NCBI GenBank assembly: GCA_024508725.1
Contig: JANINS010000004.1
Span: forward strand, 452,163 to 516,162
Direction: 5' to 3'
From: Chitinophagaceae bacterium
GTDB lineage: Bacteria; Bacteroidota; Bacteroidia; Chitinophagales; Chitinophagaceae
Length of the DNA: 64,000 nt
The notes beneath the pieces are model-generated. The model was not told the origin of the DNA. It saw only the letters and a program-made list of their open reading frames with translations, and ran no database searches. Position numbers and translations under genes: made by a program. Within the stretch, counting starts at the first letter, position 1; every line of letters starts with the position of its first letter. This document shows, one piece after another, positions 35,697-44,138 of the stretch.

Positions 35697-38600
35697 TTAC
35701 CAGATCAACCAATCGTAACTGTTGGTTTCATTCCTGCTTGTGGGTCGTTGCAATCCGTTGGTGAGTCTTACTACAGATTCTGATACGATCGCTTTTAACT
35801 CAGCTACAGAAAGTGTAGTGTGTTGGTTAAATGCATCAATAATGCTGTAAGTGAATACACCGTTCTTAAGGTCACCTCTTTCCTGTGCATATTGCATTCC
35901 TCCTGCAGCAGAAATGATCGTTGCACCGGTACCACGGCTTACATTAACGAACAGGTTTTGCATCAGTTCAAAACTATTCGTCATCCCCAGTTTCTTTGAT
36001 GAGGTGATCTTGATATTACTCTTTGTTCTTGTTCCCAAACTATCCAGCTTTGTTTTTGCCGCCTCAATTTTTGCGATCTCTTCTTTATCTACTTCGCCAC
36101 TATGGCAGGCATCTATCAGCATTAGCTTTTTACGTGGTTTAATTCCATCAAGCAAGCTTTCCATTTCATCGTACGACAATCCATTCTCTTCCGGTTTAGT
36201 AAAGTTTACATCGAAAGTGCTGAGGTAATAATCAAGTTCTTTACTAAGAAGTCCATGACCTGAATACGATATCATCACTTTATCATCTTCCTTTAGCTGC
36301 AATAACTTTTGTTTTAATGCAAGTATATTATCTCTCGTAACTTTTTGGTTGAACAATGTATCGATAATAATATCCGGGTTCTTTTCTTTCAGTTTTATTG
36401 CCAGATCAAGGATGTCTTTCACACTCCACGAAAGATTGTGTTGATCGTCTTTGAACTCATTTATCCCTATGCCGATAAAATGAAGTTTTTCCTGAACTGG
36501 CGTAGCAGGAGTATAATTCACCACCAATGGATGCCGGAAACTCTCTGTTGCATTTACATTAGTAACTGAAGTTTCGATACGATTGATGCCGGATGATAGT
36601 TTGATGATAAGTGTTGTATCGAACTGTTGAATTTTTTTGTTTTTGATGGATATGCCCTTTGATGAATACAACGGGCTTTCATTTATCCAAACATTGAAAC
36701 GTTCTAACTGGTAGGATGAATCTTTAAAACTCACTCGTAATTGCAAGGTATTGTTTCGCTGATCATAAGCGATAGATTCACTGTTTACGATCACTGATTC
36801 TGGTAAACCAAAGTTCTTTTCGAAAGCACTTGTATCAACGCCCAGTCTTTTTATTCGTTTGAGATACGCTTTCTTATAAGAAGATATCATCATCGTATCC
36901 TGCGATCCTGTTGCTTGCAGTAATTTATCGGGCCTGTTATACCTGCTGTCTAACTGATCGAATGTGATCACCTTTAATCCAGACGTTACATAATAGAGCA
37001 GTTTGGAAGCCGACTGGGTACACATATAATAACCCAACGTATCCTGCAGAAAATAATCTTTGTTATTCAGCGGAAAGAAAGTGTACACTGGCTTACCGGT
37101 ATTTGCATTCCAGACTCTTGCTGTATTGTCTGCTGATACTGACACTATCTTTTGATCGTTGGGAAAATAGGAAAGATCATTTATTGCACGATCATGTGCA
37201 TTGATCTCATACAACAGCTTACCGTCTTTTATTTGCCAGAACTTCAGTTTACCATTAAAATAACCAATCGTAAGCTGATCTTTATTCCTGTTAAAACCGA
37301 AAGCATTGGGTTTATCGTAACTCTTTAACTCTGCCAGTAATTTCTTTGTTTGTATATCCACCACTTTAACCGAATAACTGCAGGTGTACACCAACAGATT
37401 ATCAGATAGCAGATACTTTGTACTCAAAATATCACCCCACATATCAGTCTCATCATCGTCGATACTCATTAACGGTTTCCCGGTGGCAATGTTTATCAGT
37501 TGTACAGCTTTATCTGTAACATTCAGTATCATGTTTCTACTTGCGATAATATCATGATACCTGCCCAAGTTGGTTAGTTGGTATACAAGTTTCCCTTTCG
37601 TATTATAAACTTTGATCGTTTTTGTAGAGGGTACAACCAGGTATTCACCTGTATTGCTAAATGTGATTGAATCAGGATAATAGTCTGCTCCAATAGAGAA
37701 CTTGCTGATCATTGCACCGGTTACACCATTCCATATTTTCACTGTGTCTTTTTCATTGGTTGCAACATACTCTCCATTAGAACTCATTGCAGCCTTATCC
37801 ATAAACCAGTCGCCATGTTTAAATTCAATCAACTTCTTTCCTGATGCCACATCGAACATATAGGCTGTACCATCATGATTGGAAAGAAATACTCTTTTAT
37901 TATCGGAGGTAAACCTGAAACTTCCCTGGTAAAAGACAGACATGGTTCTGATATCTTTTCTAAGATCGCTGTGCTTTAAAGTTTGTGTAGCTGCATCCCA
38001 GATCTTTGCTTCTCCAGTTTCAGGAATGGTTAAGATATACTTACCATCGTTGCTCGTATGTAATTGTCGGATCTCATCTTTACCCGGTTGAAACACAGAA
38101 GCAAACGTTCCATCATTGGTATTCCATACACTGCTGATCTCGTAGTTATTTAGAAACAGATATTTACCATCCGGACTAAACGATACTTTAGTGATCTCGC
38201 CTCTTGTTTTCCCTTTTAATTCAGCCAGCAGGCTGCCATCATTCTTATATAACCTTGCTGATTTATCCCATGATGATGTAACGAAGTATTTTCCATCATC
38301 ACTAAAAGAAGCATGTCTTATATATTGGCTGTGGCCGGGAATTGCTTTTTTGTCTGAAGATGTAGTTCCGATCTTATACATCATCAACAGATTGCTTTTG
38401 TATAATTCTTTACCGGGAAAGATGATCTTGTTCATCACTGGATCATAATTCCCCTTTGTTAATGTAAAATTGTTAAGCTCTGCAGATAACTGCTGCACCA
38501 GCTTTCCTGTTGCCACATCCCATATACTCACAGCCGTATCTCCCCAGGATAAGTTTTGTGCGGCTACCACATATTTTCCATCATGTGTAATGAAAGCATT

Positions 38601-39317
38601 GGCAGTTCCCCTGGTGAATTTGGCAAACGTGTGTAACAATCCACCTGAAGTATTCCATAACGTAAGCGATTTATCGTAACCCGATACCAGTACTTTCTTA
38701 CCATCATCATTATAATCAAGATTATAAATACCCGATTCTCCTGCTTTGAAAGATGAGACCAGTTCTCCTGTCCTCGTATTGTATTCCTGTACATCCGGCG
38801 ACTTGCTATTGTACACAACGAACTTTTCTCCATCAGCACTAAAGATCACTCCATTCAAATCTTTTACATGCAGTGACAATAATTTATCGCCAGTCTCAGT
38901 ATTGTATATCTTAACCGAATCGGCGTAATCATAGCCGATGACTTTACTACCGTCAGGAGTAAAACTAGACGTTGGATAAGCTGGTAAAGAAATATTGATC
39001 GTCTTGTGCAGGCTTGCATCGTTCAGTTTCCATAAGTACAGTTTATCCGAAGAGGCAAAGACATACTTTCCACCGGGAACAAATCCAGCAGCTCTATATC
39101 GGTCTCCTTCCGTTCTAAGATCAGCCACCATTATACCGGTTGGCACCTGCCATAGTTTGATGGTCTTATCTTCTGAAGAGGTGAGCAGGAACCTGTTATC
39201 ACTGCTGAACGTGGCTATGTTAATGCCATTTGTATGACCAATAGGTAACACCTGTTTGTACTGTGCCACCGAGATCAATGAACAACTGATGCTTATGAAT
39301 AGTAAAACAAACCTCAT
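35697..39317 (-). CDS. Secreted WD40 beta-propeller protein with C-terminal caspase-like protease domain
   Basis: 1206 residues. Signal peptide MRFVLLFISISCSLISVAQ; then about 14 WD40-type blades (GHTNGINIATFSSDNRFLLT, GHSQYIRHASFSDDGKYFVT, AHDRAINDLSYFPNDQKIVS) making two propellers up to about 740; a linker and an Ig-like strand region (750-930); and a C14 caspase domain (933-1206) with the catalytic dyad in ISYSGHGLL (His1011) and LIDACHSGEVD (Cys1061). The dyad is intact, so proteolysis after Lys/Arg or Asp is expected. The signal peptide places the protein outside the cytoplasm, unlike most WD40-caspase proteins. Role unknown. Confidence 0.88.
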   Translation of the reverse strand: MRFVLLFISISCSLISVAQYKQVLPIGHTNGINIATFSSDNRFLLTSSEDKTIKLWQVPTGIMVADLRTEGDRYRAAGFVPGGKYVFASSDKLYLWKLNDASLHKTINISLPAYPTSSFTPDGSKVIGYDYADSVKIYNTETGDKLLSLHVKDLNGVIFSADGEKFVVYNSKSPDVQEYNTRTGELVSSFKAGESGIYNLDYNDDGKKVLVSGYDKSLTLWNTSGGLLHTFAKFTRGTANAFITHDGKYVVAAQNLSWGDTAVSIWDVATGKLVQQLSAELNNFTLTKGNYDPVMNKIIFPGKELYKSNLLMMYKIGTTSSDKKAIPGHSQYIRHASFSDDGKYFVTSSWDKSARLYKNDGSLLAELKGKTRGEITKVSFSPDGKYLFLNNYEISSVWNTNDGTFASVFQPGKDEIRQLHTSNDGKYILTIPETGEAKIWDAATQTLKHSDLRKDIRTMSVFYQGSFRFTSDNKRVFLSNHDGTAYMFDVASGKKLIEFKHGDWFMDKAAMSSNGEYVATNEKDTVKIWNGVTGAMISKFSIGADYYPDSITFSNTGEYLVVPSTKTIKVYNTKGKLVYQLTNLGRYHDIIASRNMILNVTDKAVQLINIATGKPLMSIDDDETDMWGDILSTKYLLSDNLLVYTCSYSVKVVDIQTKKLLAELKSYDKPNAFGFNRNKDQLTIGYFNGKLKFWQIKDGKLLYEINAHDRAINDLSYFPNDQKIVSVSADNTARVWNANTGKPVYTFFPLNNKDYFLQDTLGYYMCTQSASKLLYYVTSGLKVITFDQLDSRYNRPDKLLQATGSQDTMMISSYKKAYLKRIKRLGVDTSAFEKNFGLPESVIVNSESIAYDQRNNTLQLRVSFKDSSYQLERFNVWINESPLYSSKGISIKNKKIQQFDTTLIIKLSSGINRIETSVTNVNATESFRHPLVVNYTPATPVQEKLHFIGIGINEFKDDQHNLSWSVKDILDLAIKLKEKNPDIIIDTLFNQKVTRDNILALKQKLLQLKEDDKVMISYSGHGLLSKELDYYLSTFDVNFTKPEENGLSYDEMESLLDGIKPRKKLMLIDACHSGEVDKEEIAKIEAAKTKLDSLGTRTKSNIKITSSKKLGMTNSFELMQNLFVNVSRGTGATIISAAGGMQYAQERGDLKNGVFTYSIIDAFNQHTTLSVAELKAIVSESVVRLTNGLQRPTSRNETNSYDWLIW

Positions 39318-40833: not shown

Positions 40834-41124
40834 CTAATATCGGGTTCCACCTGATATGGCTCTTCTGATCAAGGCAATGATCAGGGTGAACACTGCCGAG
40901 CCTATAATGGCCCAGATGATCGGGAATGTTTTACCACCTACTTCAATGGCAAATATTTCAGGCAGACCGAACTTTCCTGCCATCCACATGCCAATGTAAG
41001 CACCGATAAAGCCTACAACGATCGATACCAGGCATCCGCCAACATTATAACCGGCAAGTGACTGGCCTATTCCGCCACAAATGGCAGCGATGATGAGCAG
41101 GATAATGATTTCTGTGATAGTCAT
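40834..41124 (-). CDS. GlsB/YeaQ/YmgE-family stress membrane protein
   Basis: 96 residues with three membrane helices: IIILLIIAAICGGIGQSLAG, GGCLVSIVVGFIGAYIGMWM and IIWAIIGSAVFTLIIALIRR. This is the small 'transglycosylase-associated' family found in general stress regulons; no enzymatic activity is known. It lies 41 bases upstream of the lipoprotein gene on the same strand but need not be co-transcribed. Confidence 0.85.
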   Translation of the reverse strand: MTITEIIILLIIAAICGGIGQSLAGYNVGGCLVSIVVGFIGAYIGMWMAGKFGLPEIFAIEVGGKTFPIIWAIIGSAVFTLIIALIRRAISGGTRY

Positions 41125-41394: not shown

Positions 41395-41709
41395 ATGGGC
41401 TTTGATCAATATCATGAACCACCGGAAGAGCTTTCGCAGGAAGTACGAACATTTGCCAGAATGGTGAAATCGCTGATCGAAGAGGCAGAGGCGATTGACT
41501 GGTATGAGCAACGTATATCTGTAGAGAAAGATAAAGAGGCAAAGAAAATAATGGAGAATACGCAAAAGGAAGAGTTCATTCATTTTGCAATGGATCTTGA
41601 ATTTCTTCTTCGTAAAAAGCCAAAGTGGCGTACCATTATGAAGAATGTATTATTTAAAGAGGGTGATATAGTAGAAAATGGCGAGAAGGCTGAAGAGGCT
41701 GTAGAATAA
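41395..41709 (+). CDS. Encapsulated-ferritin-like (EncFtn) protein without shell gene
   Basis: 104 residues matching the EncFtn plan: HEPPEELSQE at the start, EEAEAIDWYEQR (Glu29, Glu30, Glu32, Trp36, Tyr37) and QKEEFIHFAMDLEFLL (Glu59, Glu60, His63). These line up, with a shift of two, with the di-iron ligands Glu32, Glu62 and His65 of the Rhodospirillum rubrum protein as I recall it, and with its Trp38 and Tyr39. EncFtn oxidises iron at a site shared between two subunits, normally inside an encapsulin nanocompartment. The tail (DIVENGEKAEEAVE) lacks an obvious encapsulin targeting peptide and no encapsulin gene lies in the window. Confidence 0.8.
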   Translation: MGFDQYHEPPEELSQEVRTFARMVKSLIEEAEAIDWYEQRISVEKDKEAKKIMENTQKEEFIHFAMDLEFLLRKKPKWRTIMKNVLFKEGDIVENGEKAEEAVE

Positions 41710-41765: not shown

Positions 41766-42446
41766 TTACTCTGCCATCTTTCTCGTAGCCGATTTACTCA
41801 TCTCTGTACCAGACGGAAACAATCTTGCATTTTCCAAATGACGGATATGCATTGTTATCGCATTCGTTTCGTTGATGAACTTCCAATCCATATCCCTGTA
41901 TGCTTTCTGCAGTATTATGCCGGGTCCTTCATTTAATGCTATCCATTTTCCTTTGATGGTTTTCTTATCCATGGTGATCCATTCGTAGGTGTTGTTTGGA
42001 AATATTCTTAGGATATCAGAGGCAGCACCATAACTGTATTCATCAATAACATCGTTACCATCAGTACGTGTATTCACAGCCATTACTTCACCAACATTCC
42101 ATTCGCCGGTGAAAAATTCTGTCCACCATGTTTGTTTTACGGGTGATACAACCTGGCTGTAGGGCATGTATTCTGGCCAGCCGGTTTTATCGTTGATAAG
42201 GTATTTCAACTCTTTCGTTTCTGCATTTTTATTCGCTGCATTGTATGGAACGCCCACTTCGGTGATCACTCCTTTGAACCAAGTGGTAGTGTAATACAAA
42301 ATAGAATCACCGGGTTTATAAGCAGGAAACTTTTCCCATTTTCCTACACCAGAGCTGATTGCTGTCGCTGCCTTTTTATTCTCACATGAAGCAAGCAAGA
42401 TTACTGACAGAAAAAATATTTTTATTAAGAGGAGGGTAGGCTTCAT
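41766..42446 (-). CDS. Lipoprotein, function unknown
   Basis: 226 residues with lipobox LLASC (Cys21). The mature part begins with a small domain YKPGDSILYYTTTWFKGVITEVG that looks like a Tudor/SH3-type barrel as in plant agenet-like modules, followed by a domain with TYEWITMDKKTIKGKWI and LQKAYRDMDWKF. Such SH3-like lipoproteins occur in Bacteroidota without a known role. The 291-base stretch before the next gene (42447-42737) contains only AT-rich sequence with no recognisable feature. Confidence 0.65.
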   Translation of the reverse strand: MKPTLLLIKIFFLSVILLASCENKKAATAISSGVGKWEKFPAYKPGDSILYYTTTWFKGVITEVGVPYNAANKNAETKELKYLINDKTGWPEYMPYSQVVSPVKQTWWTEFFTGEWNVGEVMAVNTRTDGNDVIDEYSYGAASDILRIFPNNTYEWITMDKKTIKGKWIALNEGPGIILQKAYRDMDWKFINETNAITMHIRHLENARLFPSGTEMSKSATRKMAE

Positions 42447-43238: not shown

Positions 43239-44138
43239 TTATTTCATATCTCTATATTGCTCAAAAAACTTCATATTAGGTTCAAAAATGGTTTTAGGGA
43301 TCACACCTAATTCCACGTTTTCAAACATCTCTACAAGCTTTTCACCATCTACTAATTCAAGTTTAATATTTGATTTTTCAATGTCTAAAGCACTTTTAGG
43401 GAATGAACCAGTAGTTATCATTAGACCTTTTTCCACGCTTCTTTTATTGGTTTCCATAACACCAATAAAGGCTTGTACTTTTTCTGTAGGTACAGTTCCT
43501 TGATATCTTTTGCATTGAAAGAACACACTTAAGCTTACAAATGGATTTAACTTCAAAGTTGCATAACCGTCAATTCCACCATCATGTGAACGTTGTGTGA
43601 TTTCAATGTCCTCGAAATTATATTCTTTGAGTAGTCTGCCACATAAGTGTTCAAAACCAACTGGTGAAATGCTTTGTAAAACCTCAATTAAAGATGGTTT
43701 AATTAGAATTTGCCCTTCTTCAGTTTCAGTTTCTTCTTGTGCGTTAACAACTTTCTGTTTTTCTCCTTCAACAGATTCTTTATTCTCTCTTAAGTCTTGA
43801 AAAATCTTGACCCATTTAAGAAAAATGTCGTGAGATTGTTTTTCATTCAGCTTCGTACTCCAACCTTTCGGAGTTAAGGTCCAAACACCATGTTTTGAGG
43901 AGTCAAGTAGTTCATCCCAAACAAGGTATTGCCTTGCCCAAGCAATTTGATTAGGAAATCTCAATTGTCCGGATTTTTTATAACGAGCATTAAGGATTTC
44001 ATCAGGTATTTTGTATGATGTACCGATCCACTCGGTAATTTCTCTTGGTTTCGCCGAGCCACCTAATGCCCTTAATGCATCAAGGACAGGTCCAAACCAC
44101 TTTATAAATTCTGCCTGTCCGTTTTTCTTTTTACTCAT
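43239..44138 (-). CDS. mrr: Mrr-type restriction endonuclease (type IV)
   Basis: 299 residues. Residues 1-95 form the Mrr N-terminal winged-helix domain (FGPVLDALRALGGSAKPREI, KSGQLRFPNQIAWARQYLV, SKHGVWTLTPKG). Residues 150-280 are a PD-(D/E)XK endonuclease: GFEHLCGRLLKEYNF (Glu163), SHDGGIDGYA (Asp190) and FFQCKRYQG (Gln208-Lys210). Mrr cleaves DNA carrying foreign methylation. No methyltransferase is adjacent, as expected for a type IV system. A dispersed repeat lies just beyond its start, between it and ahcY. Confidence 0.88.
   Translation of the reverse strand: MSKKKNGQAEFIKWFGPVLDALRALGGSAKPREITEWIGTSYKIPDEILNARYKKSGQLRFPNQIAWARQYLVWDELLDSSKHGVWTLTPKGWSTKLNEKQSHDIFLKWVKIFQDLRENKESVEGEKQKVVNAQEETETEEGQILIKPSLIEVLQSISPVGFEHLCGRLLKEYNFEDIEITQRSHDGGIDGYATLKLNPFVSLSVFFQCKRYQGTVPTEKVQAFIGVMETNKRSVEKGLMITTGSFPKSALDIEKSNIKLELVDGEKLVEMFENVELGVIPKTIFEPNMKFFEQYRDMK

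What the first reader, a model, noticed from the sequence alone, without database searches (positions are those of the whole stretch)
41395..41709. Encapsulated-ferritin-like protein with no encapsulin
All iron ligands and the WY pair of the EncFtn family are kept (Glu30, Glu60, His63, Trp36, Tyr37), but there is no shell gene in the window and no recognisable cargo peptide at the C-terminus. EncFtn is known as a ferroxidase that cannot store iron by itself. A free one would be a new way to use this fold, perhaps as an iron detoxifier or with an unlinked shell.
Basis: partly seen in the sequence, partly recalled or inferred. Interest (0 to 1): 0.75.

Follow-up and report, generated by a model that had tools for sequence, protein, structure and literature searches.

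The report
Shell-free EncFtn-type ferroxidase
The gene encodes a small iron-oxidising protein of a family best known for working inside bacterial protein shells, but neither this bacterium nor nearly all relatives carrying it has such a shell, so it most likely works free in the cell to make excess iron harmless; such free forms were already recognised, though little studied.

Summary
ORF 41395-41709 (+, 104 aa) is a clear EncFtn-like protein (PF22277, 88 bits, cut-off 27) with every ferroxidase ligand kept, and the 99.99%-complete genome has no Family 1 encapsulin. It is not a lone oddity: it belongs to the tailless class already named 'Non-EncFtn' (He 2016) or 's-FLP' (Eren 2024; PDB 3k6c). 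I tested the point that literature leaves open, whether s-FLPs are secretly encapsulated. Of 47 genomes with a tailless relative, 46 have no encapsulin; of 23 tailless Pseudomonadota cases, 21 have none. The two shells inspected in tailless genomes have their own peptide-tagged peroxidase. All three proteins found with a cargo peptide sit beside a shell gene. The window protein lies in a well-supported 'MGFDQYHEP' clade spread over about nine phyla that has lost the outer metal site (HxxxEExEH) described for bacterial EncFtns. In Nitrobacteraceae the gene usually sits in metal-efflux islands, and on two plasmids it is divergent from the iron-exporter gene mbfA. Best reading: a free, probably decameric ferroxidase for iron/oxidative-stress detoxification. 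Activity, oligomer and fate of Fe(III) are untested.

The parts
41395..41709 (+). EncFtn-like (s-FLP/Non-EncFtn class) gene, 104 aa, stop codon included
41479..41490 (+). Codons 29-32 (EEAE): inner EXXE gateway (E29, E32) and ferroxidase ligand E30
   Evidence: alignment to R. rubrum EncFtn E31/E34/E32; site roles from PMC11202242
41500..41505 (+). Codons 36-37: the Trp-Tyr pair, Y37 = R. rubrum Y39 near the ferroxidase centre
41557..41583 (+). Codons 55-63 (NTQKEEFIH): ferroxidase ligands E60 and H63 kept; outer-site residues His57 and Glu64 of R. rubrum replaced by N55 and I62
41668..41706 (+). Codons 92-104: C-terminal segment predicted helical (92-103), no cargo-loading peptide

Best explanation
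A free-standing, cytosolic ferroxidase of the EncFtn fold (s-FLP/Non-EncFtn class). Two-helix subunits pair to form a symmetric di-iron centre (E30, E60, H63, Y37 from each) and probably assemble into a ring of five dimers. It takes up Fe(II), most likely through the inner E29/E32 gateway, and oxidises it with O2 or H2O2, lowering free Fe(II) and Fenton chemistry under iron, metal or oxidative stress. Without a cage it cannot hold a large mineral core, so the Fe(III) is presumably passed to another sink (phosphate, export, or a ferritin where there is one). Shown here: family, predicted fold, intact centre, absence of a Family 1 shell gene and of a targeting peptide, and repetition of this state across phyla. 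Inferred: decamer, catalysis, physiological role, fate of Fe(III).
For: Family and fold: (3k6c, 5da5, 5n5f; TM about 0.78-0.80 by query length). Ligands invariant 81/81. No encapsulin in the own genome, in 46 of 47 genomes with a tailless relative, in 25 of 26 Bacteroidota genomes searched, or in 21 of 23 Pseudomonadota genomes with tailless forms. The two shells inspected in such genomes carry a CLP-tagged DyP instead. A CLP occurs only in L080, L126 and L127, each with an adjacent shell. Context in relatives: divergent from mbfA (iron exporter) with TTTAGAATGATTCTAAA between; metal-efflux genes within 10 kb in 22 of 24 Nitrobacteraceae loci; GGAAC-N16/17-CATT upstream of all 10 Mesorhizobium genes.
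Against: No biochemistry for any member of this clade. EncFtns outside their shells are weaker ferroxidases and do not store mineral (PMC11202242, PMC5012862). The outer metal site of bacterial EncFtns is lost, so metal traffic may differ, or the metal may not be iron. In the window's own genome no neighbour ties the gene to iron and I established no regulatory site. The tendency of carriers to lack classical ferritins vanished after the carrier list was corrected.
Confidence: 0.68

Rival explanations
1. A metal buffer or chaperone of efflux systems: the di-metal site binds Zn, Cd, Co or other divalent ions and helps pumps export them; iron oxidation is secondary.
For: In Nitrobacteraceae the gene is 10-50 bp downstream of a heavy-metal P-type ATPase in several loci and lies in czc/CDF islands, also on conjugative plasmids. 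Zn inhibits EncFtn, so other divalent ions reach the centre (PMC11202242). The outer metal site differs from other bacterial EncFtns.
Against: The metal-island link is confined to one family (22/24 loci) and nearly absent in Bacteroidota (3/29), Mesorhizobium (0/10) and others (0/14); the islands share ancestry. The complete ferroxidase ligand set including Tyr is invariant. Two plasmid copies pair with an iron exporter.
Confidence: 0.15
2. Cargo of an unrecognised compartment: the protein is loaded into a Family 2 or novel shell through a cryptic C-terminal signal.
For: The Family 2 search had a silent control. Review authors leave open a cryptic binding sequence in s-FLPs (PMC11202242). The last residues are moderately conserved (E100 invariant).
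Against: No Family 1 shell in nearly all carrier genomes; known CLPs appear exactly where shells are adjacent; the tail is predicted as a helix continuous with the domain; no shell-like neighbour recurs.
Confidence: 0.06
3. A small oxidoreductase or O2/H2O2 scavenger using the diiron centre (rubrerythrin-like use) with no role in iron handling.
For: Weak resemblance to aldehyde-deformylating oxygenases in the helix pair (below their cut-offs); EcfG-like upstream motif in Mesorhizobium suggests general stress.
Against: Closest characterised relatives are ferroxidases; no recurrent redox-partner gene among the neighbours.
Confidence: 0.1

Closest known systems
s-FLP / Non-EncFtn class (N. europaea NE0167, PDB 3k6c; He 2016, Eren 2024)
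   Same: EncFtn fold, same ferroxidase ligands, about 95-105 aa, no targeting peptide; best PDB match of the clade's profile.
   Different: Separate clade with 100/100 support; lacks the HxxxEExEH outer site that NE0167-type proteins keep; extra predicted C-terminal helix 92-103 and a different tail.
R. rubrum EncFtn Rru_A0973 (5da5) and H. ochraceum EncFtn (5n5f), FLP-TP encapsulin cargo
   Same: Fold, ferroxidase centre, inner EXXE gateway.
   Different: Those carry a disordered tail with SLGIGSLK and have a cognate encapsulin; this has neither.
Classical Ftn/Bfr/Dps ferritins (PF00210)
   Same: Diiron-carboxylate ferroxidase chemistry expected.
   Different: Two-helix subunit without a cage; no PF00210 match.

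Membership tests
EncFtn-like family (PF22277) | Profile score over the curated cut-off | tested here: met
   88.3 bits against 27, profile positions 1-85 of 85
EncFtn-like family (PF22277) | Ferroxidase ligands Glu, Glu, His with nearby Tyr (Rru E32, E62, H65, Y39) | tested here: met
   E30, E60, H63, Y37; invariant in 81/81
EncFtn-like family (PF22277) | Two long helices plus a short third helix, EncFtn fold | tested here: met
   AlphaFold2 mean pLDDT 92; Foldseek top hits 5n5f, 5l8g, 3k6c; a prediction, not a solved structure
EncFtn-like family (PF22277) | Metal-dependent annular decamer with ferroxidase activity | not testable with these tools
   needs purified protein
s-FLP / Non-EncFtn class | About 100 aa without a C-terminal targeting peptide | tested here: met
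   104 aa, no CLP-like motif after residue 88
s-FLP / Non-EncFtn class | No encapsulin in the genome to receive it | tested here: met
   PF04454 absent from the own genome; Family 2 inconclusive
Bacterial EncFtn with HxxxEExEH motif (Eren 2024) | His and second Glu forming the outer C', c and c' metal sites | tested here: not met
   N55 and I62 in the window protein; the Glu64 equivalent is never Glu in 81 clade sequences
FLP-TP encapsulin cargo | Targeting peptide and cognate shell | tested here: not met
NCBIfam TIGR04535 encapsulin-associated ferritin-like protein | Score of at least 125 bits | tested here: not met
   89.4 bits
Classical ferritin/Bfr/Dps (PF00210) | PF00210 match | tested here: not met
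   not among the Pfam matches at E up to 10

The most novel reading that the evidence does not exclude
A deep, mobile clade of EncFtn-fold ferroxidases works permanently outside any shell. It has given up the outer metal site of other bacterial EncFtns and hands its Fe(III) to exporters or another sink, as an accessory of iron-export and metal-efflux systems. In the window's genome it would stand in for both ferritin and encapsulin, since neither PF00210 nor PF04454 is found there.
Probability: 0.3. Interest if true: 0.6.

Novelty: new variant of a known kind. Interest (0 to 1): 0.4.

Why it matters
Reviews treat EncFtn as something that needs an encapsulin and leave open whether s-FLPs are encapsulated. 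The survey here indicates that in Bacteroidota and Pseudomonadota the shell-free form is by far the commoner one, so the default use of the fold there may be shell-free. It also gives a test set (tailless proteins, one tagged member of the same clade, a clade with an altered metal site) for asking what a ferroxidase without a storage cavity does with its iron.

Tried and rejected
(1) Complementarity with classical ferritins in the window's bacterial family: the own genome lacks PF00210. A first test looked suggestive (6/18 against 7/68 in genomes of at least 3.5 Mb and 95% completeness, p 0.025). But one 'carrier' (G629, L111) proved to be an MbfA/VIT-like protein and another (G449, L110) a degenerate copy; after correction nothing is significant (p 0.12 to 0.59). 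Rejected. (2) Conserved operon in Bacteroidota: none. (3) ICE/Irr-type palindrome upstream in the 80 loci: none found; present only on the two mbfA plasmids. (4) Phage origin: no match in phage records. (5) Promoter scan upstream of the window gene: not above shuffles; my Bacteroidota promoter pattern was uninformative. (6) Family 2 encapsulin search: inconclusive, control silent. (7) My simple ORF caller failed at some G+C-rich loci ('displaced' rows), so neighbour tallies are lower bounds.

Full report
CHECK OF THE OBSERVATION. The ORF at 41395-41709 (+) is real: ATG start, 104 aa. It stands alone between two minus-strand genes: a short membrane protein with a sub-threshold transglycosylase-associated match at 40834-41124 and a protein without a Pfam match at 41766-42446. 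It matches Pfam PF22277 EncFtn-like over the full profile, E 2.8e-25, 88 bits against a cut-off of 27. It matches NCBIfam TIGR04535 at 89 bits, below that model's 125-bit cut-off. PDB matches by sequence are R. rubrum EncFtn, H. ochraceum EncFtn and N. europaea NE0167; with the clade profile NE0167 (3k6c) comes first. The AlphaFold2 monomer has mean pLDDT 92 and Foldseek puts 5n5f, 5l8g and 3k6c on top.

NO SHELL. The window lies in a genome of 3.88 Mb, 8 contigs, 99.99% complete. It holds no PF04454 encapsulin, while control genomes ring, and exactly one PF22277 gene. It also has no PF00210 ferritin/Bfr/Dps, although all 14 control genomes ring. A Family 2 (SrpI-like) search was negative but its control was silent, so Family 2 is not excluded.

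IS THAT UNUSUAL? No. 235 stretches in species-representative genomes encode relatives; the best 80 (65-89% identity) come from Bacteroidota, Alphaproteobacteria, Gemmatimonadota, Chloroflexota, Acidobacteriota, Verrucomicrobiota, Armatimonadota, Actinomycetota and Ca. Doudnabacteria. Many are metagenome bins, so single phylum labels may be wrong. All but one of the 80 lack a cargo peptide. The exception, L080 from a Solirubrobacterales bin, ends in TGSLGIGSLKGAER and its gene overlaps the next ORF, an encapsulin, by 4 bp. I searched 48 whole genomes behind these loci: encapsulin in two, L080's genome and Afipia clevelandensis. The Afipia encapsulin stands beside a dye-decolorising peroxidase with its own SLGIGSLK tail (the peroxidase is named from its sequence, from my own knowledge). 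In Bacteroidota at large 5 of 392 genomes carry an over-cut-off match, in the window's own family 22 of 246 (one of these is a false positive and one a degenerate copy). Of 26 such genomes searched one has an encapsulin, again beside a CLP-tagged DyP. In Pseudomonadota 25 of 397 genomes are over the cut-off. Of these proteins 23 are tailless and 2 have a CLP with an encapsulin in the same locus; encapsulin occurs in only 2 of the 23 tailless genomes, not in the same locus, and I did not examine its cargo. The tail of NE0167-type proteins (LFTDKPIAH), listed as a putative targeting peptide in PMC11202242, occurs in genomes without any Family 1 shell, which argues against that role. The genome sets overlap in part, so their counts should not be added.

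WHERE IT SITS. A maximum-likelihood tree (62 proteins, 100 columns, rough bootstrap) separates the 'MGFDQYHEP' clade (100/100), which holds the window protein and L080, from a clade with R. rubrum EncFtn, NE0167 and other tailless proteins. The CLP label needs three changes on the tree, so tails have come or gone more than once. The window clade keeps the ferroxidase centre and the inner EXXE site, but the outer-rim motif HxxxEExEH described for bacterial EncFtns (PMC11202242) is broken: the His is Asn in 65 of 81 and the Glu of position 64 is Lys, Ile or Leu in all 81; the other 18 tailless proteins examined keep both. L080, which is tagged for a shell, also lacks the site, so this is a mark of the clade and not of life without a shell.

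NEIGHBOURHOODS AND FUNCTION. In Bacteroidota no neighbour recurs. In Nitrobacteraceae 22 of 24 loci have a heavy-metal P-type ATPase within 10 kb, in several 10-50 bp upstream, in islands with CzcA/CzcB/CzcC, CDF and MgtC genes. The same kind of island occurs on conjugative plasmids of Rhodopseudomonas and Bradyrhizobium. These islands share ancestry and count as few independent events. On two nearly identical conjugative Bradyrhizobium plasmids the gene is divergent, 175 bp apart, from the iron exporter gene mbfA; the gap holds the palindrome TTTAGAATGATTCTAAA, which resembles the Irr-binding ICE box (the motif from my own knowledge; Irr control of mbfA is in PMC7762939, and PMC4902296). In B. 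japonicum mbfA and bacterioferritin are synthetic lethal (PMC4902296), so an iron exporter and a ferroxidase form a sensible pair. All 10 Mesorhizobium genes have GGAAC-N16/17-CATT about 50-80 bp upstream, against 21 of 5,260 control windows (a count that includes the hits themselves); it resembles the EcfG stress-sigma motif (PMC6599016) but with A for G in the -10 part. These point to iron and to general or metal stress, by inference.

MECHANISM. Most likely a free ring of five dimers oxidising Fe(II) at the subunit interface. The ring, the activity and the destination of Fe(III) are inferred from R. rubrum and H. ochraceum EncFtn; none is shown for this clade. Rivals are a buffer for other divalent metals, cargo of an unrecognised compartment, and a redox enzyme without a role in iron.

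VERDICT. Observation confirmed. The additions here are the genome-wide evidence that the class is largely shell-free, the separate clade with a lost outer metal site, and leads to iron-export and metal-efflux contexts.

Noticed in passing
window 35697-39317 (-): 1206-aa protein with WD40 beta-propellers and a C-terminal caspase-like domain (PF00656), a metacaspase-type architecture.
   Followed up: no
window 43239-44138 (-): Mrr-type restriction endonuclease (Mrr_N plus Mrr_cat).
   Followed up: no
window genome G000 (whole genome): No PF00210 protein (ferritin, bacterioferritin, Dps) in a 99.99% complete genome; over a quarter of the sampled genomes of the same family without the EncFtn-like gene also lack it.
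   Followed up: partly
L110 (genome G449): A diverged EncFtn-like copy in the same bacterial family with the ferroxidase region altered (IKRYEQR, LDAFRHF): likely loss of the metal centre.
   Followed up: no
L109 (genome G511): EncFtn-like gene split over two frames in the assembly, a pseudogene or a sequencing error.
   Followed up: no
L143 2636-3001, L145 1363-1728: A P-II-type regulator gene lies between the adaptor and pump genes of a czc-like efflux operon.
   Followed up: no
L017 10609-11082 and 18 other Nitrobacteraceae loci: A small, apparently secreted protein of unknown function recurs just downstream of the EncFtn-like gene in metal islands.
   Followed up: no
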